From NCBI RefSeq assembly GCF_020037015.1, contig NZ_JAIQDE010000001.1:496001-560000 (forward strand): a stretch of 64,000 nucleotides of DNA, in the 5' to 3' direction. A program made the translations under genes and the position numbers. The notes beneath the pieces were generated by a model. The model worked only from the letters and a program-made list of their open reading frames with translations. It was not told the origin of the DNA and ran no database searches. This document shows, in pieces, positions 123 through 9,321 of this stretch (positions are counted from its first letter, which is position 1; every line of letters begins with the position of its first letter). The stretch comes from Corallococcus sp. AS-1-6. Its GTDB lineage: Bacteria > Myxococcota > Myxococcia > Myxococcales > Myxococcaceae.

Positions 123-348
123 CGGGGGCTCACCTTCGGGTGCGACAGGACGCGACAACTGTGAAGCAGGTTGGCGCGGTGGCAAGTTTTCGGGTCTTCC
201 CCAGCCGTCCCGCGCCGTGGACGTGGAGCGCGCGCACTGGAGACGCCTGACGCGAAGGTGATGGAGCGCGCCCCTGTCGTTTCAAGGGGTTGGCCCCTGG
301 CACGGACGGTGGAAGGCAGCCCCGGCGAATCCCTGCCGGAGGCACCCC

Positions 349-846
349 TTGGAAGACCGTCGCATCCCGTCGTTGAGCATCGCCCCGTCCATCGCGCGCC
401 AGACGCCGAAGACGGAGTTCGGCCCCACGCTGGCGCGAGCGGCGCGCGAGGTGGTTCGCACGGGCGCGGGGCTCGTGGGCGGCATGTTGCCGTCGGGGGC
501 CATCTCCAGCGCCGTGGTGTCCTCGCTGGCGGGCACGGTGTCCGCAGCGGTGCCGGCCGAAGCGGTGTCGTCGGTGCCGGCGGCGGGCGGCGCTTCCGCG
601 ATGTCGGCGCGCGCGAGCACGGCGGGGATGGCGGCTTCGACGGGGAGCGCGGCGGCGGGGCAGGGGGACGCGTGGGACCTGCTGGAGGCCCAGAAGCTGA
701 TGGCCGCGGACGGCCAGAAGTTCAACATGGCCTACCTGTCGCTCCAGAACGAGATGCAGAAGGAGAGCCGCGAGCACAACGCCCTCTCCAACATCATGAA
801 GGTCCGCCACGACTCGGCGAAGGCCGCCATCAACAACATCCGCTGA
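349..846 (+). CDS. Candidate type III needle-like (SctF-like) protein
   Basis: A 165-residue protein starting with TTG; the choice rests on a perfect GGAGG (338-342) six bases upstream. The first ~95 residues are low-complexity and rich in Ala, Ser and Val, with no clear signal peptide. Residues ~100-165 look like an alpha-helical hairpin. The last 22 residues (from N144) match the C-terminal end of T3SS needle subunits: NALSNIMKVRHD aligns without gaps to NAQSNTVKVFKD of Salmonella PrgI, and both proteins end 10 residues later with an Ile/Asn/Arg-containing tail. It precedes the inner-rod gene by 12 bases and heads the export operon. Seen: the motif and position. Inferred: a needle or filament subunit, which would be twice the usual needle length (~80 residues). 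It could instead be an unrelated helical substrate. Confidence 0.5.
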   Translation: MEDRRIPSLSIAPSIARQTPKTEFGPTLARAAREVVRTGAGLVGGMLPSGAISSAVVSSLAGTVSAAVPAEAVSSVPAAGGASAMSARASTAGMAASTGSAAAGQGDAWDLLEAQKLMAADGQKFNMAYLSLQNEMQKESREHNALSNIMKVRHDSAKAAINNIR

Positions 847-858
847 GGCGCGTTCGCG

Positions 859-1347
859 ATGGCCATCGACAAGTTGGGAGCCGTGGGCGGCGCGGGTCCG
901 TCGCCCGCGGTGGAGTCCGGCAGGGAGACGTTCGGCAAGGTGCTGGAGGGTGTGCGCACGCCCCCGTCGCGCCCCGTGCCGGTGACGACGGAGGGGCCGC
1001 CGAAGCCGGTGCGCACGCCCACCGAGGCCACCGCCGGCACGTCGCGTGCGGACGGCGTGGAGCGGGCGAAGGCGGGCTGCGCGGAGGTGAAGCCGGGGGC
1101 CCGCGTGGACTCGGCCCAGGCCGCGCGCGGTCAGCAGGCGGTGGAGGTGCTGGACCGGGTGGGGCAGGCGCAGCAGCGGCTGGACCACATCCTGAAGCTC
1201 GCCGAGTCCGGCCGCACGTTCAGTCCCGCTGAGCTGCTCGCGCTCCAGGCCCACGTCTACCGCGCCAGTCAGGAGCTCGATCTCGCCGGCAAGGTCGTCG
1301 AGAAGGCCACCGGCGGCGTCAAGCAGGTCCTCCAGACCCAGGTGTGA
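859..1347 (+). CDS. sctI: Type III secretion inner rod protein SctI-like
   Basis: 162 residues. The first ~85 are Pro/Ala/Gly-rich and look disordered; the C-terminal ~60 are helical and match the inner-rod family: a LLALQ segment, then an amphipathic stretch with SQELDLAGKVVEKATGGVK and the end QTQV, as is typical of YscI/HrpB-type rod proteins. In characterised injectisomes this protein forms the periplasmic rod that connects the SctR/S/T export gate to the needle base. It lies directly upstream of sctJ, the usual sctI-sctJ order. The ATG at 859 follows the previous stop by 12 bases. The N-terminal extension is longer than in most rod proteins. Family assignment rests on the C-terminal pattern and gene order. 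Confidence 0.7.
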   Translation: MAIDKLGAVGGAGPSPAVESGRETFGKVLEGVRTPPSRPVPVTTEGPPKPVRTPTEATAGTSRADGVERAKAGCAEVKPGARVDSAQAARGQQAVEVLDRVGQAQQRLDHILKLAESGRTFSPAELLALQAHVYRASQELDLAGKVVEKATGGVKQVLQTQV

Positions 1348-1362
1348 GGAGTCCTCTCTTCC

Positions 1363-2178
1363 ATGCGTTCCGCTCCCCTTCGTTGTCTCTGTCTCCTCCT
1401 GCTCCTGGGCGCCTCGGCGTGCCGGGAGCGCATCCAGCACGGCCTCGACGAGCGTCAGGCCAACGAGCTGCAGACGGTGCTCGTCGAGCGGGGGCTCGAC
1501 GCGCGCAAGGTGCCCGAGCCGGGCAAGAAACCCACCTGGGCCATCGAGGTGACGGACGCGCAGTCCTCGGACGCGGTGCGCATCCTGGCGGAGCTGGGGC
1601 TGCCCCGGCTCGCGGCGGAGACGGGCTGTGACGTGTTTGGCGGGAGCGGGCTGGTGCGCTCGCCGCTGGAGGAGCAGGTCTGCCGCGTCCGGGGCATGGA
1701 GCGGGAGCTGGAGAAGACGCTCCAGACGGTGGACGGCGTCCTGCTGGCGCGCGTGCACCTGGTGGTCCCACCGCCGCCGAGGCCGGGACAGGCGCCCGCG
1801 CCCTCGAAGGCATCGGCCATGCTGCGCACGGCGCCCGGCGAGGCAACCCGCGTCCGCAAGTCGGCGGACACATTGCGTGAGCTCATCGCGGGAGGCGTGG
1901 AGGGGCTGTCACCGGAGGCGGTCTCGCTGCTGGTGGACGAGGTGACGACGCACGTGGAGGCGCCGTCCCCGAAGGGAGGTCCCGTCCCGCTGCGGCTGCG
2001 CGTGGTGCTCGCCCTGCTGGGCGTGCTGGTGACGGGGCTGTCCGGAGCGCTCGTCTGGACGACGCTGCGCTGGAGGCACTACCGGGCCCTGTCGGAGCAG
2101 CCGCCCGCGGCGCCGCCTGCACCGCCCACGCCCGCGAGGCCGGTGGTGACCCCGGGCTCCACGCGCAAGCTGGCCTGA
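1363..2178 (+). CDS. sctJ: Type III secretion inner-membrane ring lipoprotein SctJ (YscJ/FliF family)
   Basis: 271 residues. An N-terminal hydrophobic signal ends in a lipobox (LGASAC, Cys20), followed by the YscJ/PrgK ring-building region: a first domain (~25-75), the conserved GLP turn (LGLPR), and a second domain with LEEQV, a GMERELEKTL helix and a DGVLLARVHLVVP strand. A single transmembrane helix lies near residues 205-230, with a short Pro-rich cytoplasmic tail. Family members form the MS-ring-like inner-membrane ring of the injectisome. ATG at 1363 follows a GAGGAG (1346-1351) at somewhat long spacing. Being a lipoprotein, not a two-TM FliF, marks it as injectisome-type rather than flagellar. 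Confidence 0.9.
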   Translation: MRSAPLRCLCLLLLLGASACRERIQHGLDERQANELQTVLVERGLDARKVPEPGKKPTWAIEVTDAQSSDAVRILAELGLPRLAAETGCDVFGGSGLVRSPLEEQVCRVRGMERELEKTLQTVDGVLLARVHLVVPPPPRPGQAPAPSKASAMLRTAPGEATRVRKSADTLRELIAGGVEGLSPEAVSLLVDEVTTHVEAPSPKGGPVPLRLRVVLALLGVLVTGLSGALVWTTLRWRHYRALSEQPPAAPPAPPTPARPVVTPGSTRKLA

Positions 2179-2187
2179 GCACGCGCC

Positions 2188-2667
2188 ATGGACGTCACAC
2201 GTGTGGGACGGGTGCTGCGCCAGGCCCGGAAGCTCCTGCCCGCGAGGAAGGAAGCCCCGCGGGCCACGGTGGCGGAGGTCACGCTGCCCGCGCTGTCCCT
2301 GCCGTTGGAACGCATCGCGCTGGTCGTCTGTGTCCTGGCGCGGGACCGCGCCGCGGAGCTGCTGGGGGGACTGGTGGACGCCGAAGCGGGCAGGGCGCTG
2401 CGCCACCTGGAGCGCTTCGCCGCCATGCCCTCCGCCCAGCGGCAGGCCAAGGTGGCGCTGGAGTTCGGCGAGCGGGCGGACGGCGCGCACCGTCTGGCCC
2501 TCTTCCTGGAGGCAGCACCCGAAGCCCTGCGCCAGGAGGCCCTCCGCGGCCTTCCGCCGTACCACCGCAGCCGCTTTCCCCAGTGGGAGGGCGCCGCATC
2601 GCGAGCGGATGCTGCTCCGGCCCTGACCGCGCTGGCGGAGCGGCGCATCCGCGAAGCCCTGCGCTGA
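2188..2667 (+). CDS. Small protein with FliG N-domain-like pattern, in the type III cluster
   Basis: 159 residues, no signal or transmembrane segment. The central part (~38-95) reads as a helical repeat: ERIALVVCVLARDRAAELLG, then a GLVDAEAGRAL helix and an AKVALEFGER end. The order hydrophobic helix / AAELL / LRHLERFA / xxEF recalls the FliG N/M domains (AAxxLxxLGEExAAEVLKHL ... EEF), which bind the C-terminus of FliF. Its gene lies 9 bases after sctJ, the FliF relative, where sctK/sctL usually sit. I cannot assign it to SctK or SctL by sequence. Seen: helical pattern and position. Inferred: a cytoplasmic connector between ring and sorting platform. Function otherwise unknown. Confidence 0.5.
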   Translation: MDVTRVGRVLRQARKLLPARKEAPRATVAEVTLPALSLPLERIALVVCVLARDRAAELLGGLVDAEAGRALRHLERFAAMPSAQRQAKVALEFGERADGAHRLALFLEAAPEALRQEALRGLPPYHRSRFPQWEGAASRADAAPALTALAERRIREALR

Positions 2668-2800
2668 GCGTCCCCGGGCATGGAGGGCCATCCCGAAGAC
2701 GGACCTCCACCCCCTGCCAACACCTTGATTCCACGAGCCGGCCCCCTGGCCACGGCCGTGCACAGGGGACGTGTGTCCCATCGCCGTCCTGGAGCTCCGG

Positions 2801-3949
2801 ATGCAAACGAACCCAGTCAGGTCCCCCAGCGCCGCGAAGAAGCCCACGCGACCGTTCCGCCCGGGAGCGCGCCGGCTGACGCGCGCCCACCTGGTGTTGG
2901 ACCAGCGGCCCCAGGTGGGGCGCTGGGGCGCGGAGCTGCTGCGCGACGTAGGCGCGGCGCTGTCGAGGGACCTGGGGGCGGCGGTCAAGGTGGAGGGGCA
3001 CCTGGTGCCGGCGGCGGTCCAACCGGAGCGCGAGCTGGCGGTGGGAATGGTGTTCGCGCTGGTGGAGCTTTCGGCGGGGGGCACCGCCATCGTGGAGCTG
3101 GAGGTGCCGCTGGTCTTCGCGGCGCTGGCGAGGCTGGCGGGGACGGGGCCGCGGCCGGCTCCCGTGGCGGAGCTGACGCGGCTGGAAGAGTCCACGCTGG
3201 TGTACCTGCTGCTGTCGGCCCTGGCCGCGATGCGCGGGCAAGGCGAATGGGTGCGAAGGCTGGGACCTCGTCTGTCCGCGGTGTCGATGCGGCGCGCTGA
3301 CGTGCTGACGCGGGTCGACCCGAGACAGCCCTATGTGGCGGTGTTGCTGACGGCGACGGTGGAGGGCGCGACGGTGGGCGGCCGGGTGCTCCTGCCCGCC
3401 CGTGCCGTGCAGACCGCGTTCCAGGAGCTGCCCGTGGAGTCAGCAGGCGCGGTGGCGCCCCAGGTGCTGGCGGCGTCGATCCCCGCGCGCTGCCTCATGG
3501 GGCGCAGTCCATTGCAGGCCTCGGCGGTGGATGCGCTGGCCGCGGGAGACGTCGTGCTCATCGAGGGCGTGCGTCTCCGGGACGGTCGGGTGGAGGGCCA
3601 GGGCCAGTTGATCACCCGGGGCTTCGCGCTCCGGGGTGGGTTTCTCGCGGAAGGATTTTCGACGGGGAGCGTGCACTCGCGCGCGGCCCGACAGGAGTCG
3701 GACATGGTGGCGACGAACAAGCGGAGCGAGGCGATGCCGCCGCTCCCGGTGGATGTGGAGATCGAGCTGACCCGGTTGATGTTGCCCCTGGCCGAGCTGG
3801 CGGCGCTCAAGCCGGGCACGTTGCTGCCGCTGCACGTGAACGCGAGCAGCCCGGTGCTGTTGCGCGTGGGCGACCGCGTGGTCGCGCGCGCGGAGTTGGT
3901 GGAGATCGAAGGCGAAGTGGGCGCCCGCATCCTGGCGTTGCTGCCGTGA
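2801..3949 (+). CDS. sctQ: Type III secretion C-ring/sorting platform protein SctQ (SpoA domain)
   Basis: 382 residues from ATG 2801, chosen over an in-frame GTG at 2771 because GGAG (2791-2794) is well spaced. The C-terminal ~70 residues form a SpoA/FliN-type domain: PLPVDVEIELTRLMLPLAEL, then LKPGTLLPL, SPVLLRVGDRVVARAELVEI and GARILAL. A degenerate upstream SpoA-like segment (VEGATVGGRVLLPA ... DVVLIEGVRL) sits at about 195-260. SctQ/FliM-FliN proteins form the cytoplasmic sorting platform that receives substrates and docks the ATPase complex; no ATPase or stator gene is visible in this window. Its stop codon overlaps the next start (GTGA). Length fits SctQ (~300-380). Confidence 0.88.
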   Translation: MQTNPVRSPSAAKKPTRPFRPGARRLTRAHLVLDQRPQVGRWGAELLRDVGAALSRDLGAAVKVEGHLVPAAVQPERELAVGMVFALVELSAGGTAIVELEVPLVFAALARLAGTGPRPAPVAELTRLEESTLVYLLLSALAAMRGQGEWVRRLGPRLSAVSMRRADVLTRVDPRQPYVAVLLTATVEGATVGGRVLLPARAVQTAFQELPVESAGAVAPQVLAASIPARCLMGRSPLQASAVDALAAGDVVLIEGVRLRDGRVEGQGQLITRGFALRGGFLAEGFSTGSVHSRAARQESDMVATNKRSEAMPPLPVDVEIELTRLMLPLAELAALKPGTLLPLHVNASSPVLLRVGDRVVARAELVEIEGEVGARILALLP

Positions 3950-4416
3950 GCGCAACCGTGAACACGCTGCTGTCCTCCTTCTCGCCCCGCGGCAGGTTGC
4001 TGTTCGCGTCGGCCCTGCTCGTGGGGCTGGCGACGCTCGCGCCCCTGGGGGGCCTGTCGCTGGTGGGCACCTCGCGCCTGCTGATGGGCTCGATGGCGCT
4101 GGCCGGACTGGGCTGGGTGCTGCTTCGCAAGGGAGGCGTGGCCAGGAGTGCCGACGCGGCCTCTCCGGCGCCCTTGAGCATCGTCTCGAGGACGGGGCTT
4201 TCCCAGCGCTGTGGCCTCGCGCTCGTGGAAGCGGAGGGACGGCGGTACCTCGTGGCCTACGGCGACACCTTCGCGCAGATCCATGAGACCCACGCCAATC
4301 CCATGCCGGCGATGAAGTCCCGGTTCGACCTGGACCTGGAGCCGACGGTGCTCTTCCCCCGTGCGCGACAGCCCAGGACGGCGTGCGGCGCGCTCCGGAA
4401 GCGGGGTGGGGGATGA
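3946..4416 (+). CDS. FliO-like membrane protein of the type III export cluster
   Basis: 156 residues, GTG start overlapping the sctQ stop by four bases. Two hydrophobic segments occur (~residues 18-38 and 42-60), followed by a soluble domain with a FliO-like pattern: PLSIVSRTGLSQRCGLALVE, then AEGRRYLVAYGDTFAQIHE. FliO domains read 'vv.r..lg....l.lve..gr.lllgv....i..l'. FliO assists assembly of the FliP/FliQ/FliR gate in flagella, and fliO directly precedes fliP; here the gene directly precedes sctR, the fliP homologue. FliO is normally absent from injectisomes. The last ~45 residues after the domain are basic and probably disordered. Call based on short pattern plus synteny. Confidence 0.6.
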   Translation: MSATVNTLLSSFSPRGRLLFASALLVGLATLAPLGGLSLVGTSRLLMGSMALAGLGWVLLRKGGVARSADAASPAPLSIVSRTGLSQRCGLALVEAEGRRYLVAYGDTFAQIHETHANPMPAMKSRFDLDLEPTVLFPRARQPRTACGALRKRGGG

Positions 4417-5138
4417 AGGCCCTCGGATGGGGATGCGGCGTGCTCCTGCCCGCGAGCGCCTTCGCCGCGGAGCAGTCCCTGTCGCAGGCGTCCTATGCCG
4501 GCAGCCCGCTGGCGATGATGGGGATGCTCGCGCTCCTGTCGCTGCTGCCGTTCGCGGTGCTGATGCTGACGAGCTTCTCGAAGATCGCCGTGGTGCTCTC
4601 CCTGGCCCGCTCGGCGATGGGCACGCAGCAGGCACCGCCGACGCTGGTGCTCACGGGGCTGGCGGTGGTGCTGACGGGGCACATCATGGCGCCGGTGATG
4701 GAGCGCATGTACGACGCGGGACAGGCGGCGTACGACGAGGTGCATTCCGGAGCGCAGGTCCTCTCCGCCGCGAAGCAGGTGACGGAGCCCCTGCGCGCCT
4801 TCCTCATGAAGCACGGCGGTCCGGAGGAGCGGGCCCGCTTCGTGGACCTGGCCCGCGAGCTGCGTCCTCCGGAGGAGTCCGAGCAGGTGCAGGAGACGGA
4901 CCTGTTCGTCGTCATCCCGGCCTTCGTCATCACCGAGCTGAAGGAGGCCTTCCAGATTGGCTTCATCGTCTTCCTGCCCTTCCTGGTGCTCGACATGGTC
5001 ATCGCCAACGTGTTGCTCGCGTTGGGCATGCAGACGTTGTCGCCGGGCCAGGTGAGCCTGCCCTTCAAGATCCTCCTCTTCGTCGCCGTGGATGGCTGGG
5101 CCCTGCTCGCGCGGGGACTCATCCTCGGCTACCGGTGA
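4413..5138 (+). CDS. sctR: Type III export gate protein SctR (FliP/YscR family)
   Basis: 241 residues from ATG 4413, which overlaps the previous stop (ATGA) and follows a G-rich ribosome site; an in-frame start 30 bases upstream is less likely. A signal-peptide-like N-terminus (ALGWGCGVLLPASAFA) precedes the export-gate core. SctR features are visible: LLPFAVLMLTSFSKIAVVLS near the N-terminus, a periplasmic-side charged loop (~100-160), then VVIPAFVITELKEAFQIGF, FLPFLVLDMVIANVLLALGM and PFKILLFVAVDGW. SctR forms five copies of the SctR5S4T1 pore complex through which substrates pass. A cleavable signal is typical of flagellar FliP, again a flagellum-like trait. Confidence 0.95.
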   Translation: MKALGWGCGVLLPASAFAAEQSLSQASYAGSPLAMMGMLALLSLLPFAVLMLTSFSKIAVVLSLARSAMGTQQAPPTLVLTGLAVVLTGHIMAPVMERMYDAGQAAYDEVHSGAQVLSAAKQVTEPLRAFLMKHGGPEERARFVDLARELRPPEESEQVQETDLFVVIPAFVITELKEAFQIGFIVFLPFLVLDMVIANVLLALGMQTLSPGQVSLPFKILLFVAVDGWALLARGLILGYR

Positions 5139-5142
5139 CGCC

Positions 5143-5412
5143 ATGACCCAGGACGTCCTGCTCACCCTGGGGCGTGAAGCCCTGCTGTTGATGGTGCTCG
5201 CGTCGCTGCCGCCCATCGGCGCGAGCCTGCTGGTGGGCTTCCTGATGAGCCTCTTCCAGGCGACGACCCAGTTGCAGGAGAGCACGCTGTCGGTGGTGCC
5301 CAAGCTGTGCGCGGCGGTGCTGTCCCTGGTGCTCGCGGGGCCGTGGATCGCCGGACAGCTCACGCGCTTCACCCACCAACTCTTCATGCTCATCGCGGAG
5401 GTGGCGCTGTGA
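5143..5412 (+). CDS. sctS: Type III export gate protein SctS (FliQ/YscS family)
   Basis: 89 residues with two transmembrane helices, the standard size and topology of FliQ/SctS. The start MTQDVLLTLGREALLLMVLA and the FQATTQLQESTLSVVPKL loop are the family signature (loop with Q.QE.TL..PK). Four copies wrap the SctR/SctT cone in known export gates. ATG 5143 lies four bases after the sctR stop, and its own stop overlaps the sctT start (GTGA at 5409-5412), indicating translational coupling. Nothing unusual is seen. Confidence 0.95.
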   Translation: MTQDVLLTLGREALLLMVLASLPPIGASLLVGFLMSLFQATTQLQESTLSVVPKLCAAVLSLVLAGPWIAGQLTRFTHQLFMLIAEVAL

Positions 5413-6203
5413 ACCCGGAAGCGTTGGGCGAACAGCTCCTCGCCCTGGGGCCGCACATGGTCGCGGTGGCGCTGTGCGCGGCGAGGCTCGTGCCCATCGC
5501 GTTCCTCTGTCCATTGCTGGGAGGCCAGGCCGCGCCGACGACGGTCCGGCTGGGACTGGTGCTCGCGCTCTCGCTCTTCCTGCACGTCGAGGCGGGCGTG
5601 GAGTTCCGCGGCACGGTGGAGACGCCGGTGGTGATGGCGGCGCTCGTGGTGCGTGAGCTGGCCTACGGCGTCTCCGTGGGGCTCGTGGCCGCGCTGCCCT
5701 TCGACGCGGCGAGGATGGGCGGCCGGTTCATCGACCTGTTCCGGGGAACCTCCGCGGAGGCGAGCCTGCCGCAGGCGGGCAGCCGTGAGTCGGCCACGGG
5801 CGACGCGCTGTACCACCTGCTGGTGGCGCGGGTGGTGTCGGGCGCGCTGTTCCCCGTGGTGCTCTCCGCCCTGCTGCGAGGCTTCGGAGTGGTTCAACTG
5901 GGGGCCTTCGTGCCCACGGAGGCCTCGGCCCTGCACGTGGTGGTGATGGTGGGCGGCGCCATGGCCACGGGGCTCGCGGTGGGCGCCCCGGTGGCCGCCG
6001 CATCGCTCGCGGTGGACTGCTTCCTGGGCATGGCTTCGAGGGCCGCGGCCCAGGTGAACCTCCAGGAGCTGGGGGCTCCGCTGCGCATCCTCGGAGGCGG
6101 CGCGCTCTTGTGGCTGGGCGTGGGCCTGCTGTGTGAGCGGCTGCTCGCGGGCGTGGCCTCGACGGAGGGCGCGCTGGCGCTGCTGGGCGAGGTCTCCCGG
6201 TGA
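5409..6203 (+). CDS. sctT: Type III export gate protein SctT (FliR/YscT family)
   Basis: 264 residues, GTG start overlapping sctS. A strongly hydrophobic protein with about six membrane segments; typical FliR/SctT features are the VALCAARLVPIAFLCPLLGG first helix with a Pro, the conserved REL.YG turn (VRELAYGVSVGL), a GRFIDLFRG plug-like segment (with the GGRFID motif close to FliR's GxxID), and C-terminal repeated hydrophobic stretches. A single SctT subunit completes the export gate pore. Length matches the family (~255-265). The stop overlaps sctU (GTGA, 6200-6203). Confidence 0.93.
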   Translation: MNPEALGEQLLALGPHMVAVALCAARLVPIAFLCPLLGGQAAPTTVRLGLVLALSLFLHVEAGVEFRGTVETPVVMAALVVRELAYGVSVGLVAALPFDAARMGGRFIDLFRGTSAEASLPQAGSRESATGDALYHLLVARVVSGALFPVVLSALLRGFGVVQLGAFVPTEASALHVVVMVGGAMATGLAVGAPVAAASLAVDCFLGMASRAAAQVNLQELGAPLRILGGGALLWLGVGLLCERLLAGVASTEGALALLGEVSR

Positions 6204-7246
6204 GCGGCGAGAAGACGGAGCAGCCCACCGCGAAGCGGCTGCGAGAGGCCAGGCGCAAGGGGCAGCTTCCGCGCAGCCGGATGTTGACCTCCAGCGCGAC
6301 GACGCTGGGCGGGCTGCTGGGCTTCATCGCCTTCGCGCCCGAGGGCTTCGCTCGGCTGAAGGACTGGACCGCGCGGTTGATGCTGGAACAGACCGCCGCT
6401 GGCGCCTGGGAGGACGGGGCCTGGGCCGCCGCGCGATTGTGCGGCCCTGCCCTGGGCGGAGCGCTCGTGGCCTCGCTGGCGGTCTCCGTGGCCACCGTGG
6501 GCTTTGAAATGGACGCCCGCCATGCCGCGCCGAAGCTCGAGCGCATCAACCCCGCCGCGGGCCTCAAGCGCCTCTTCAGCGTCCGGCCGCTGCTCGAAAT
6601 GGGCAAGGCGCTGTTCGTGGCGGCGCTGCTGGGCCTCATCGTCTGGAACGAGGTGGAGGACGTGGGCCCCGATGCCTTGCGGACCGCGTGGCTCGAGGGG
6701 ACCCGGGGAATGGAGTTCCTGGTCGGCCGATTGGCGGCGCTGGTGACTCGACTGGCGTGGGTGGTGCTGGGGTGCGGCGCCGTGGACTACGCGCTCGCCC
6801 GCCGCCGTCACCTGCGCGAGCTGATGATGACCCGCGAAGAGGTCAAGCGGGAGCACAAGGAGAGCGAGGGCGACCCGCGTCACAAGGGCCAGCGGCGGGC
6901 CCTGCACCGCCAACTGGCGCAGGGCGGTCCGGCACGTGGAGTGCAGAAGGCCACCGCCGTGATCGTCAACCCCACGCACATCGCGGTCGCGCTCCGCTAC
7001 GACGCGGGCGAATGCGACGCGCCCTACCTCGTGGCCAAGGGCCGCGAACAGGACGCGCTCGCGCTCAAGGAGGAGGCGCGCCAGCGGGGCATCCCCGTGG
7101 TCCGGGACGTGCCGCTGGCCCGCAGCCTCATCCACTTCGACGTCGGAGAGTCCATCCCCGAGGAGCTGTACCAGGCGGCGGCCGTCGTGTTGCGGACCGC
7201 GATGGAGCTTCGCGAGCCGGACGACCGTCCACGGAGACAGACGTGA
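6200..7246 (+). CDS. sctU: Type III export autoprotease/switch protein SctU (FlhB/YscU family)
   Basis: 348 residues. Begins with the family hallmark SGEKTEQPTAKRLREARRKG, a cytosolic helix rich in positive charge. Four transmembrane segments lie between ~30 and ~215, then the linker LRELMMTREEVKREHKESEG and a C-terminal cytoplasmic domain containing the self-cleavage motif NPTH at residues 257-260 (VIVNPTHIAVALRY). Cleavage between Asn and Pro in homologues switches substrate specificity from early (rod/needle or hook) to late substrates. An intact NPTH implies that substrate switching is retained, although this system class has been described as needle-less. GTG start overlaps sctT; its stop overlaps the sctV ATG. 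Confidence 0.96.
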   Translation: MSGEKTEQPTAKRLREARRKGQLPRSRMLTSSATTLGGLLGFIAFAPEGFARLKDWTARLMLEQTAAGAWEDGAWAAARLCGPALGGALVASLAVSVATVGFEMDARHAAPKLERINPAAGLKRLFSVRPLLEMGKALFVAALLGLIVWNEVEDVGPDALRTAWLEGTRGMEFLVGRLAALVTRLAWVVLGCGAVDYALARRRHLRELMMTREEVKREHKESEGDPRHKGQRRALHRQLAQGGPARGVQKATAVIVNPTHIAVALRYDAGECDAPYLVAKGREQDALALKEEARQRGIPVVRDVPLARSLIHFDVGESIPEELYQAAAVVLRTAMELREPDDRPRRQT

Positions 7247-9321
7247 TGCCCCCATTCCTGAAGGTCTTGCTGAAGGCCCGTCAGTCCTCAGACGTCGTGC
7301 TCGCGGTGGCGATGGCGGCGGTGCTGGGGGCGCTCATCATCCCGCTGCCGGCATGGCTCCTCGACATGGGGCTCGCGGTGAACCTGGCCGCGGCGGTGGC
7401 GCTGCTGGTCGCGGCGCTGAACGCGAAGGACGCGCTGCGGGTGACGTCGTTCCCCACGCTGCTGCTCTTCACCACGCTGTTCCGGCTGTCGCTCAACGTG
7501 TCGTCCACGCGTCTGGCCCTCTCCGAGGGCCACGCGGGCGAGGTCATCCAGGCCTTCGGCGAGTTCGTGGTGCGAGGCGACTACGTGGTGGGCGCGGTGG
7601 TGTTCGCCATCCTCACGCTGGTGCAGTTGCTGGTGGTGACCAAGGGCGCCGAGCGCGTGGCGGAGGTGTCCGCCCGCTTCACGCTGGACGCCATGCCCGG
7701 CAAGCAGATGTCCATCGACGCGGACCTGCGCGCGGGCGCCATCGACCAAACGGCGGCCCGGCGCAGGCGGCGCGACCTGGAGCGCGAGTCCCAGATGTTC
7801 GGCGCCATGGACGGCGCGATGAAGTTCGTGAAGGGCGACGTCGTCGCGGGCCTGGTCATCGTCGCGGTGAACCTGCTGGGCGGCACCCTCATCGGCGTGT
7901 TGCAGAACGGCCAGTCCTTCTCCGAGGCCGCCGCCACCTTCGCCCTCATCGCCATCGGCGACGGGCTCGTGTCCCAGGTGCCCTCACTGTGCATCGCAGT
8001 GGCCGCGGGCCTCGTCGTCACGCGGGTGGCGTCGGAGAAGGAGGAGGACTCGCTCGGCACGGAGATCGGCTCGCAGTTCTTCGGTGACTTCCGCACGCTC
8101 GCCACCGTCGCGGGCCTGTGCGTCGCGCTGGCCTTGATGCCGGGCATGCCGCACCTGACCTTCCTCGCGTTGGCGGCGGGCCTCGGCGGGCTGGGGTATG
8201 CGCTGCGGCGCAAGAGCCAGTCACCGGAGAAGTCACCGACGAAAGAGGGCGCCTCCCCGGAAGCCGCGATGCCCGCTGGCGCCGCGGGCAAGCCGCCGGA
8301 GAGCGCGAAGGCACCCGTGGGGGTGACGCCGCTCACGCTGGACCTGTCCTCGCAGTTGACGCCGCTCGCGGAGGCTGACGGAGGCGCCTTCGTGCACACC
8401 GTGCTGAACGCCGTGCGCGACGAGCTGTTCTTCGAGCTGGGCGTGCGCATCCCTGGCATCCGGGTGCGGACCCACGCCGCCTACCTGGGCCCGGGCGAGT
8501 ACCGCATCCTGCTGGACGAAGTGCCCGCCGGTGGCGGCGTGGTGCAGCCCGGCGCCCTGTACGCGCTCGTTCCTCCCGGCGAGCTGGCCTTCCTGGAGGT
8601 CCAGGCGGAGGCGTCGGTGGAGCCCGCCAGCGGGCGGCCCATCAGCCGCGTGGGGGAGGGGGCCCGTTCCCGGCTGGAGCTGGCCCAGGTGCCGGTGCGC
8701 AAGCCCTCGGAGCTCATCGCGGACCACCTGCGGGCCGTGCTGCGCCTGCGCGCCGCGGCGCTGCTGGGACTCCAGGAGGTGCAGGGACTGCTGGAGGGAC
8801 TGGAGGCCCAGTCGCCCGTGCTGGTGAAGGAGGCGCTGCAGAAGGTGCCGCTGCCGCTGCTGGTGGACGTGCTGCGGCGGCTCGTGCAGGAGCAGGTGAG
8901 CATCCGCGACCTGCGCGCCATCCTGGAGGCGCTCGTGGCGCCCACCACCGAAGGCGACGCCACGGCCCTGGCCGAGCGCTGCCGTCAGGCCCTGCACCGC
9001 TACCTGAGCCACCAGTTCGCGCCCACGGGCCCGCTGTACGCGTACCTCGTGGACCCGGAGGTGGAGGAGGTGCTGCGCGCCAGCGGTCCCCGGGGGCCCG
9101 CGCCGGAGCCGGAGCGCATCCTGGAGATTCTGGAGGGGGTGCGGCTCATCGCCAACGGGGGCCGGGCGGTGCTGCTCGCGGCCCCGGACATCCGCCGGCC
9201 GCTGCGCAAGCTGTGCGAGGGACCGTTCCCGGACGTGGCGGTGCTCACCTACGGTGAGCTGGACGGGGACCTGCAGATTCGCCCCATCGGCCGGCTGTCG
9301 CCGGTCGCCGTGGGGCGCTGA
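7246..9321 (+). CDS. sctV: Type III export channel protein SctV (FlhA/YscV family)
   Basis: 691 residues, start ATG 7246 overlapping the sctU stop (TGATG). The N-terminal half carries about eight transmembrane helices. The FHIPEP-family signature is present (FTLDAMPGKQMSIDADLRAG, Met-Pro-Gly at residue ~150). After a Pro/Lys/Ala-rich linker (~325-360) the cytoplasmic domain follows, with PLTLDLSSQLTPLAE and ELGVRIPGIRVR, and the family's GEYRILLDEVPAG segment. SctV forms a nonameric ring that binds chaperone-substrate complexes and uses proton-motive force. Length is normal. It ends the export run; the next gene is convergent only three bases away. Confidence 0.96.
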   Translation: MPPFLKVLLKARQSSDVVLAVAMAAVLGALIIPLPAWLLDMGLAVNLAAAVALLVAALNAKDALRVTSFPTLLLFTTLFRLSLNVSSTRLALSEGHAGEVIQAFGEFVVRGDYVVGAVVFAILTLVQLLVVTKGAERVAEVSARFTLDAMPGKQMSIDADLRAGAIDQTAARRRRRDLERESQMFGAMDGAMKFVKGDVVAGLVIVAVNLLGGTLIGVLQNGQSFSEAAATFALIAIGDGLVSQVPSLCIAVAAGLVVTRVASEKEEDSLGTEIGSQFFGDFRTLATVAGLCVALALMPGMPHLTFLALAAGLGGLGYALRRKSQSPEKSPTKEGASPEAAMPAGAAGKPPESAKAPVGVTPLTLDLSSQLTPLAEADGGAFVHTVLNAVRDELFFELGVRIPGIRVRTHAAYLGPGEYRILLDEVPAGGGVVQPGALYALVPPGELAFLEVQAEASVEPASGRPISRVGEGARSRLELAQVPVRKPSELIADHLRAVLRLRAAALLGLQEVQGLLEGLEAQSPVLVKEALQKVPLPLLVDVLRRLVQEQVSIRDLRAILEALVAPTTEGDATALAERCRQALHRYLSHQFAPTGPLYAYLVDPEVEEVLRASGPRGPAPEPERILEILEGVRLIANGGRAVLLAAPDIRRPLRKLCEGPFPDVAVLTYGELDGDLQIRPIGRLSPVAVGR

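What the first reader, a model, noticed from the sequence alone, without database searches (positions are those of the whole stretch)
349..846. Needle-like C-terminus in a myxobacterial type III system thought to be needle-less
The 165-residue protein ends with NALSNIMKVRHD plus a ten-residue tail, which aligns without gaps to the end of the Salmonella needle protein PrgI (NAQSNTVKVFKD plus ten residues); about 11 of 24 positions agree from memory of PrgI. It is the first gene of the export operon, directly before the rod gene sctI. Type III-like systems of M. xanthus have been described as lacking a needle. If the match is real, a longer, two-part needle or filament protein has been overlooked because of its low-complexity N-terminal half.
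Basis: partly seen in the sequence, partly recalled or inferred. Interest (0 to 1): 0.75.

Follow-up and report, generated by a model that had tools for sequence, protein, structure and literature searches.

The report
Overlooked needle-like genes in myxobacterial injectors
The first gene of a syringe-like secretion system in a predatory soil bacterium ends in a stretch related to the needle protein of known bacterial syringes, and the sister system that is called needle-less carries such genes too, so these machines may have needles after all.

Summary
Window 349-846 encodes 165 aa (LF1), first gene of an 11-gene non-flagellar type III (T3SS) operon, directly before sctI-sctJ. Its last 22 residues match PrgI at 11 positions; of 1,274 open frames the next best, 8, is its own paralogue, the others 5 or fewer.

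The match looks like homology. A profile of six solved needle C-termini aligns end-to-end with the LF1 family (hhalign 86%, E 5e-6); 12 controls give 1.6% or less. The gene lies before sctI-sctJ in 57 of 72 testable loci, where sctF lies elsewhere (recalled).

Corrections: by content this is the second system, T3SS(2), not the predation T3SS*; no hairpin is predicted; no curated needle cut-off is reached, and LF1-only profiles find no needle in the PDB.

Wider result: the T3SS*-type locus, published as needle-less, carries a 187-aa paralogue and mostly 69-77-aa needle-sized genes, often in tandem, also in a Myxococcus xanthus strain. Polymerisation is untested.

The parts
338..342 (+). GGAGG, probable ribosome-binding site of the needle-like gene
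   Evidence: sequence; six bases before TTG 349
349..846 (+). needle-like gene, here called LF1 (165 aa), first gene of the operon
397..438 (+). conserved N-terminal motif RQTPKTEFGPTLAR (residues 17-30); a low-confidence helix is predicted over 24-42
490..525 (+). conserved hydrophobic motif PSGAISSAVVSS (residues 48-59)
529..663 (+). variable Ala/Ser/Gly/Thr-rich linker (residues 61-105), mostly under pLDDT 50
736..843 (+). SctF-like C-terminal segment (residues 130-165), within a helix predicted over residues 106-164 (block means of pLDDT 88-95 for 111-160)
859..1347 (+). sctI-like inner rod gene (162 aa)
   Evidence: PF17001 E=3.9e-4; NF038054 E=0.0081; both under cut-off
1363..2178 (+). 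sctJ-like inner ring lipoprotein gene
   Evidence: PF01514 72.5 bits, over its cut-off of 24.4; TIGR02544 134.7 bits, under its cut-off
2188..2667 (+). ORF of 159 aa kept in the operon, function not assigned (weak FliG_M, E=0.015)
2771..3949 (+). sctQ, C-ring protein (start not settled)
   Evidence: TIGR02551 104.0 bits, over its cut-off of 100.8
3946..4416 (+). fliO-like gene
   Evidence: PF04347 22.4 bits, cut-off 22
4383..5138 (+). sctR
   Evidence: TIGR01102 226.5 bits, over its cut-off of 208.6
5092..5412 (+). sctS
   Evidence: PF01313 E=4.4e-25
5409..6203 (+). sctT
   Evidence: PF01311 E=1.3e-32
6200..7246 (+). sctU
   Evidence: PF01312 E=1.5e-96
7246..9321 (+). sctV, last gene of the operon
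   Evidence: ORF; 691 aa; FHIPEP 691.5 bits at G000:C11:503321-505270

Best explanation
LF1 is a divergent relative of the T3SS needle subunit SctF: a secreted axial subunit whose last 35 or so residues are the SctF C-terminal helix, preceded by a variable disordered linker and a conserved N-terminal part. It is made first from the operon, exported through SctRSTUV, and packs by its C-terminal helix onto the SctI rod to form a short rod or needle, the linker pointing outward. Shown here by computation: likeness of the C-terminal segment to SctF beyond controls, the gene position before sctI-sctJ, the conservation pattern, co-occurrence with non-flagellar T3SS. Inferred: export, polymerisation, place on SctI. 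None of the eleven genes was recognised as a secretin, so the structure may stay in the periplasm or borrow another outer-membrane pore. In genomes that also have the T3SS*-type locus, that locus codes for a long paralogue (LF2) and for mostly 69-77-aa needle-sized proteins (SF), the better candidates for a true needle subunit.
For: hhalign of six solved SctF C-termini against the LF1 family: 86.0%, E=5.2e-6, columns 10-56 to 113-159, both at the end; SF 90.7%, pooled domain 97.2%; 12 controls (4 reversed profiles, SctI twice, six other operon families) 1.6% or less, E 0.03 or more. LF1 to SF by hhalign 97.4%, E=1.4e-11; SF profile to chain 7y6c_F, E=3.4e-4 over the whole PDB (the PDB title calls this chain a needle co-chaperone, but its 7 other hits, each weak at E 0.14-1.4, are all needle proteins or a needle fusion); pooled profile A5: the best 12 of 16 PDB hits are SctF chains or fusions. 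PF09392 matched in 6 of 21 LF1 C-termini and 0 of 21 reversed. LF-sctI-sctJ in 57 of 72 testable loci. LF proteins in 43 of 58 genomes, all 43 among the 46 with an SctV/FlhA-type protein. Slot proteins beside sctV in a relative (L261) pass the Pfam cut-off, 33.0 versus 29.4 bits.
Against: No LF1 sequence that I scanned reaches the Pfam needle cut-off. NCBIfam gives no needle hit for the window's LF1, nor for 12 SF or the M. xanthus SF. Profiles of LF1 or LF2 alone find no SctF in the PDB at E up to 10. Unrelated helical models score as well for some members (Arg_decarb_HB 5.8e-5 in 3 of 21), and for the genome's own SF another family, PEP-utilisers_N, is slightly ahead (0.072 against 0.085). 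No hairpin predicted. The protein is twice the size of a needle subunit. No secretin, SctD or SctN was recognised in this operon.
Confidence: 0.6

Rival explanations
1. LF1 is a needle-related protein that is not the needle shaft: a rod extension, cap or tip, or pore-forming part, in which the SctF-like helix docks on the rod while the conserved hydrophobic N-terminal part (residues 39-60) does the work.
For: Conserved N-terminal part shared with LF2 (hhalign 99.2% on the N-terminal parts); hydrophobic motif kept; the T3SS*-type locus carries both LF2 and needle-sized SF, so LF2 need not be the shaft there.
Against: In the window operon no other needle-like gene was found (one search lists only LF1 from this locus); gene position is that of sctF, not of tip or translocator genes (recalled).
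Confidence: 0.25
2. The C-terminal helix is a shared export or chaperone-binding tag, derived from SctF, on T3SS substrates of different function; LF1 is then an effector or other substrate.
For: Open frames of 72 to over 500 codons carry it at their very end, one of them far from T3SS loci (L257:6129-7751); TPR genes lie beside LF2 and SF in the T3SS*-type locus.
Against: LF1 lies before sctI-sctJ in 57 of 72 testable loci and co-occurs with the apparatus; no TPR hit among the ten operon genes scanned.
Confidence: 0.12
3. The likeness is chance between short amphipathic helices.
For: Single-protein scores are weak (E=0.096); helical models of unrelated families also hit some members; LF1-only profiles miss the needles in the PDB.
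Against:: reversed profiles, other operon families and other open frames do not show it, and the ends coincide.
Confidence: 0.03

Closest known systems
SctF needle subunits (PrgI, MxiH, YscF, PscF; PF09392, TIGR02105)
   Same: C-terminal helix with the SN..K...D....I.N pattern ending at the stop; gene before sctI-sctJ (canonical order recalled); found with non-flagellar T3SS
   Different: 165 aa rather than about 80; conserved N-terminal part and disordered linker; no hairpin predicted; below the Pfam cut-off
LF2, long paralogue in the T3SS*-type locus (L045:7734-8297:-, 187 aa; M. xanthus AM003 L296:4805-5371:-)
   Same: homologous to LF1 from end to end (hhalign 99.9%); upstream of sctI and sctJ; PF09392 E=0.0026; TIGR02105 E=0.017 for the M. 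xanthus one, all under cut-off
   Different: a TPR gene and a 131-aa gene lie between it and sctI; its locus has SctN
SF, mostly 69-77-aa genes beside sctV of the T3SS*-type locus (L044:11309-11527:-)
   Same: 37 C-terminal columns align with LF1; PF09392 at E=0.085 over 6-69 of 72 for the genome's own copy, second to PEP-utilisers_N at 0.072
   Different: needle-sized, no long linker, one to six copies
SctI inner rod (PF17001)
   Same: neighbouring gene; a nine-column likeness around the FG motif (23.4%)
   Different: canonical SctF profile does not match SctI here (1.2% or less)
HrpF (PF06266)
   Same: matches 8 of 21 LF1 C-termini, best E=0.0031; for the window's it is the HrpF end, 45-74 of 74
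   Different: the window's score is below cut-off (14.2 of 22.8); relation of HrpF to needles not tested here

Membership tests
SctF needle subunit (PF09392) | reaches the curated Pfam score | tested here: not met
   13.3 bits against 29.4; in the phylum only 2 of 195 genomes have a protein over the cut-off, and those proteins are not LF1
SctF needle subunit (PF09392) | profile likeness to solved SctF C-terminal helix | tested here: met
   hhalign 86.0%, E=5.2e-6, 12 controls 1.6% or less; but hmmsearch with LF1-only profiles finds no SctF in the PDB
SctF needle subunit (PF09392) | about 80 aa forming a helical hairpin | tested here: not met
   165 aa; single helix 106-164, 39-100 under pLDDT 50
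SctF needle subunit (PF09392) | gene next to sctI-sctJ | tested here: met
   57 of 72 testable loci of 79; 4 farther, 11 without a sctI hit
SctF needle subunit (PF09392) | present where a non-flagellar T3SS is present | tested here: met
   43 of 58 genomes, all among the 46 with FHIPEP; the other 3 of 46 have one copy each of 805-814 bits, like probable flagellar copies
SctF needle subunit (PF09392) | exported and polymerises into a needle | not testable with these tools
   needs experiment
SctI inner rod | matches the SctI models | tested here: not met
   no SctI model hit for LF1; the next gene is the SctI-like one
non-flagellar T3SS (the operon) | SctQ and SctR over the curated NCBIfam cut-offs | tested here: met
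   TIGR02551 104.0 of 100.8; TIGR01102 226.5 of 208.6; SctI, SctJ and SctU models are under theirs
M. xanthus T3SS* (predation system) | SctN, SctL, SctD and LcrH-like TPR genes in the cluster (as described in PMC10433427) | tested here: not met
   none recognised in the window operon; the one SctN over cut-off is in the C81 locus, which also has TPR genes; SctL and SctD there were named by position only

The most novel reading that the evidence does not exclude
The myxobacterial T3SS, including the T3SS* called needle-less, do build needles or periplasmic rods: T3SS* from tandem needle-sized SctF-like subunits together with the long paralogue LF2, and the second system from LF1 alone, a needle subunit with a large insert. 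They would then be secreting machines whose shaft was overlooked, not bare basal bodies.
Probability: 0.4. Interest if true: 0.87.

Novelty: new variant of a known kind. Interest (0 to 1): 0.72.

Why it matters
The absence of SctF, with that of an outer-membrane channel, is the stated reason for doubting that the Myxo systems secrete to the outside (PMC3459982, section 9), and the missing needle complex is why Kil pilus tips are proposed to stand in for it in prey lysis (PMC12075869, passages). Needle-related genes in both loci, one kind of them needle-sized and repeated in a M. xanthus strain, make that premise directly testable with gene deletions in a laboratory strain. It also bears on what the earliest injectisomes looked like, since PMC3459982 roots the tree between the Myxo group and all others.

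Tried and rejected
Chance likeness: disfavoured. SctI identity for LF1: rejected. Fold search: one Foldseek hit at E=5.5, of no use with a model of pTM 0.29. Single-sequence PDB searches: no needle for LF1 (best listed was the repeat protein Ika8, E=6.2e-8 for the whole chain from weak pieces, none passing alone) or SF. Profiles of LF1, LF2 and LF1 C-termini alone: no needle in the PDB (best was haemolysin BL L1 at 0.013); only the SF profile and the pooled profile reach it. The pooled profile A5 holds rows first found through PF09392, so its Pfam count (18 of 31) and PDB hits are not independent of that model; with the LF1-only alignment and with SF are. At E up to 10 the Pfam needle model also rings in 6 of 14 control genomes; at 0.01 in none. 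The 79 loci were found through C-terminal patterns, so conservation counts on them (0.80) lean towards that end; one search uses relatives found with the whole protein. A shared SctI-like N-terminal motif in LF1: nine columns, 23.4%, not taken as homology. An ATPase gene next to the short locus: not so in this genome; in G056, one contig with a single SctV/FlhA-type protein, the ATPase gene lies 1.7 Mb away, and in the seven other genomes it is on another contig than the short locus or far from it, which in broken assemblies does not prove separation.

Full report
What is there. The gene at 349-846 (called LF1 here) encodes 165 aa with a TTG start six bases after GGAGG. It opens an operon of eleven genes that ends at 9321: LF1, sctI-like, sctJ, a 159-aa ORF, sctQ, fliO-like, sctR, sctS, sctT, sctU, sctV. 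SctQ and SctR pass curated NCBIfam cut-offs, so this is a non-flagellar type III system. The closest named relative is from Corallococcus exercitus (94%), so the window is probably Corallococcus (inference). Changes against four relatives fall mostly on third codon positions (14-20, against 6-12 and 1-5), as in a coding gene.

The last 22 residues agree with PrgI at 11 positions. Of 1,274 open frames none comes near except LF2, a paralogue, with 8; the rest have 5 or fewer. In Pfam the only family listed for the protein at E up to 10 is T3SS_needle_F, at E=0.096, residues 130-164 to positions 37-71 of 71. By itself this is not significant.

Conservation. LF relatives (best E under 1e-8) occur in 44 of 59 genomes searched with the whole protein. 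In 29 relatives taken from there, mean identity to the window is 0.83 for the last 30 residues, against 0.44 for 11-35, 0.39 for 36-60 and 0.19 for 61-105 (bits per column). On 50 relatives found through C-terminal patterns it is 0.80 and 0.17, a set that leans towards that end. LF was found in 43 of the 58 genomes that were also searched for SctV/FlhA; all 43 are among the 46 with such a protein, none of the 12 without it has LF, and the remaining 3 of 46 have one copy each that scores like probable flagellar copies.

Three related families. The genome has a second T3SS locus at C81, about 97.5-118.7 kb, with its only ATPase over the fliI/yscN cut-off. It holds LF2 (187 aa, L045:7734-8297:-), which aligns with LF1 from end to end (hhalign 99.9%, E=3.8e-34), and SF (72 aa, L044:11309-11527:-), whose C-terminus aligns with that of LF1 (97.4%, E=1.4e-11). 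Of 51 SF-like frames trimmed at a nearby start, 42 are 69-77 aa, most with a ribosome-binding site before ATG; a few of the 51 lie elsewhere in their genomes. The genus has one to four copies at this place; Archangium lansinium has six hits (title). LF2 scores E=0.0026 with the Pfam needle model, and that of M. xanthus AM003 hits TIGR02105 (SctF) at E=0.017 as its only NCBIfam family at E up to 1; both are under the cut-offs.

Is it homology to SctF? A profile from six solved needle C-termini was compared with each family: LF1 family (51 sequences, A4, a few of them LF2-like) 86.0%, E=5.2e-6; LF1 C-termini 79.1%; SF 90.7%; LF2 C-termini 67.0%; pooled domain 97.2%. Twelve controls (four reversed profiles, SctI twice, six other operon families) gave 1.6% or less. 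These E-values are for single comparisons. The SF profile has chain 7y6c_F as its best PDB hit at E=3.4e-4. The PDB title calls that chain a needle co-chaperone; its own 7 other hits (E 0.14-1.4 each) are YscF, PscF, MxiH and other needle proteins or a needle fusion, so I take it for the needle chain. With the pooled profile the best 12 of 16 PDB hits are needle chains or fusions, but some of its rows were first found through the Pfam model. Against: profiles of LF1 or LF2 alone find no needle in the PDB; NCBIfam has no needle hit for the window's LF1, for 12 SF or for the M. xanthus SF; an unrelated helical model scores 5.8e-5 among 3 of 21 LF1 C-termini; and PEP-utilisers_N is slightly ahead of the needle model for the genome's own SF. 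The Pfam needle model matches 6 of 18 LF1, 4 of 12 SF, 2 of 11 LF2, 6 of 21 LF1 C-termini and 0 of 21 of the same reversed. HrpF, another T3SS family, matches 8 of 21. In the phylum, 28 of 195 genomes have a Pfam needle match at E of 0.01 or less and 0 of 14 control genomes; at E up to 10 it was 32 of 39 relatives and 6 of 14 controls. Among the 28 is an LF1-type protein of another family (L166, 149 aa, E=0.0057) followed by sctI and sctJ.

Position. Of 79 loci from named records, 72 had at least 2 kb downstream; in 57 a sctI hit follows within 700 bases and sctJ after it; in 4 sctI is farther; in 11 none was found. Many of these loci are closely related and do not count as independent. In the T3SS*-type locus the order is LF2, TPR gene, 131-aa gene, sctI, sctJ, which resembles yscF-yscG-yscH-yscI-yscJ, where YscG is the TPR-like needle chaperone (both recalled). 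SF has its own slot beside sctV. I looked at 20 regions outside the genus; one (L281) proved to be the short locus and was set aside. In the 19 others (three of them chosen because of needle hits) the pooled profile finds a C-terminal match at E of 0.001 or less in 17, the LF1-only profile at 0.01 or less in 14; L280 had none and L267 was weak at 0.043. The pooled profile contains rows from some of these genomes; the LF1-only one does not contain slot proteins. In L261 this slot holds two tandem proteins that pass the Pfam needle cut-off. In several genera the slot protein has an open frame of about 180-300 codons instead of a needle-sized one.

Myxococcus xanthus. The genome behind L181 (strain AM003) has five hits: LF1, LF2 (188 aa, L296:4805-5371:-), a 74-aa SF (L294:2293-2517:+) about 2.7 kb from sctU and on the other strand, a second SF cut by the contig end, and a hit in a 516-codon frame. 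The papers name T3SS* as MXAN_2434-2464 and T3SS(2) as MXAN_5643-5654, the latter not involved in prey killing (passages of PMC10196010). By content the window operon is the T3SS(2) type and C81 the T3SS* type; I had no DK1622 sequence to prove this by locus tag.

Structure. AlphaFold2 on 51 sequences: mean pLDDT 63.6, pTM 0.29; helix 106-164 with block means of 88-95 from residue 111 to 160, helices 24-42 and 54-66 at low confidence, 39-100 under 50. No hairpin.

How it may work. Inference: LF1 is exported early, the SctF-like helix packs on SctI, and the linker faces outward; whether this is a needle, a short periplasmic rod or a cap is open. The T3SS*-type locus has both LF2 and SF, so there the two may be adaptor and shaft. 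No secretin was recognised in the operon (not searched genome-wide); the route across the outer membrane is open.

Novelty. PMC3459982 (section 9 read) states that Myxo systems lack SctF and that it should have been found; PMC10433427, PMC12075869 and PMC11509652 (passages) repeat that they have no needle. Searches for Myxococcus, myxobacteria or Myxococcota with SctF, needle, needle protein, injectisome, T3SS or the locus tags listed no paper whose title or shown abstract reports a needle gene there; I read only the passages named. The 2022 Cell Reports paper is not held.

Noticed in passing
L257:6129-7751:+ (G000:C11:276129-277751): A protein of about 540 aa, far from both T3SS loci, ends in the same needle-like helix (A5 E=7e-11); a similar match outside the loci is listed in 13 of the 15 genus genomes. 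Possible substrate, cap or alternative subunit.
   Followed up: partly
L044:13365-13646:-; L260:16875-17162:-; L261:12970-13260:-; L294:4870-5154:-: A separate gene of 93-96 aa resembling the C-terminal (switch) domain of SctU lies next to full-length sctU in the T3SS*-type locus.
   Followed up: no
L044:10980-11089 (G000:C81:100980-101089): Fragments of a second SF copy with a stop codon lie just beside the intact SF gene, so the array has decayed or is misassembled in this genome.
   Followed up: no
L139, L140, L142; G002:C201:8789-8962; G013:C1:2632416-2632589: Some genomes have further short SF-like open frames on other contigs or far from the T3SS*-type sctV.
   Followed up: no
window 3946-4416: A fliO-like gene inside a non-flagellar T3SS operon; already reported for Myxococcota in PMC12248157 (passages).
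   Followed up: partly
window 349-9321; L297-L300: The short T3SS operon has no ATPase gene; in genomes with a single SctV/FlhA-type protein a fliI/yscN-type ATPase gene lies elsewhere or on another contig, in L299 next to a sctL-like gene.
   Followed up: partly
L182: The record titled Comamonas sp. KCTC 72670 carries a typical myxobacterial T3SS operon; the label or the assembly looks wrong.
   Followed up: no
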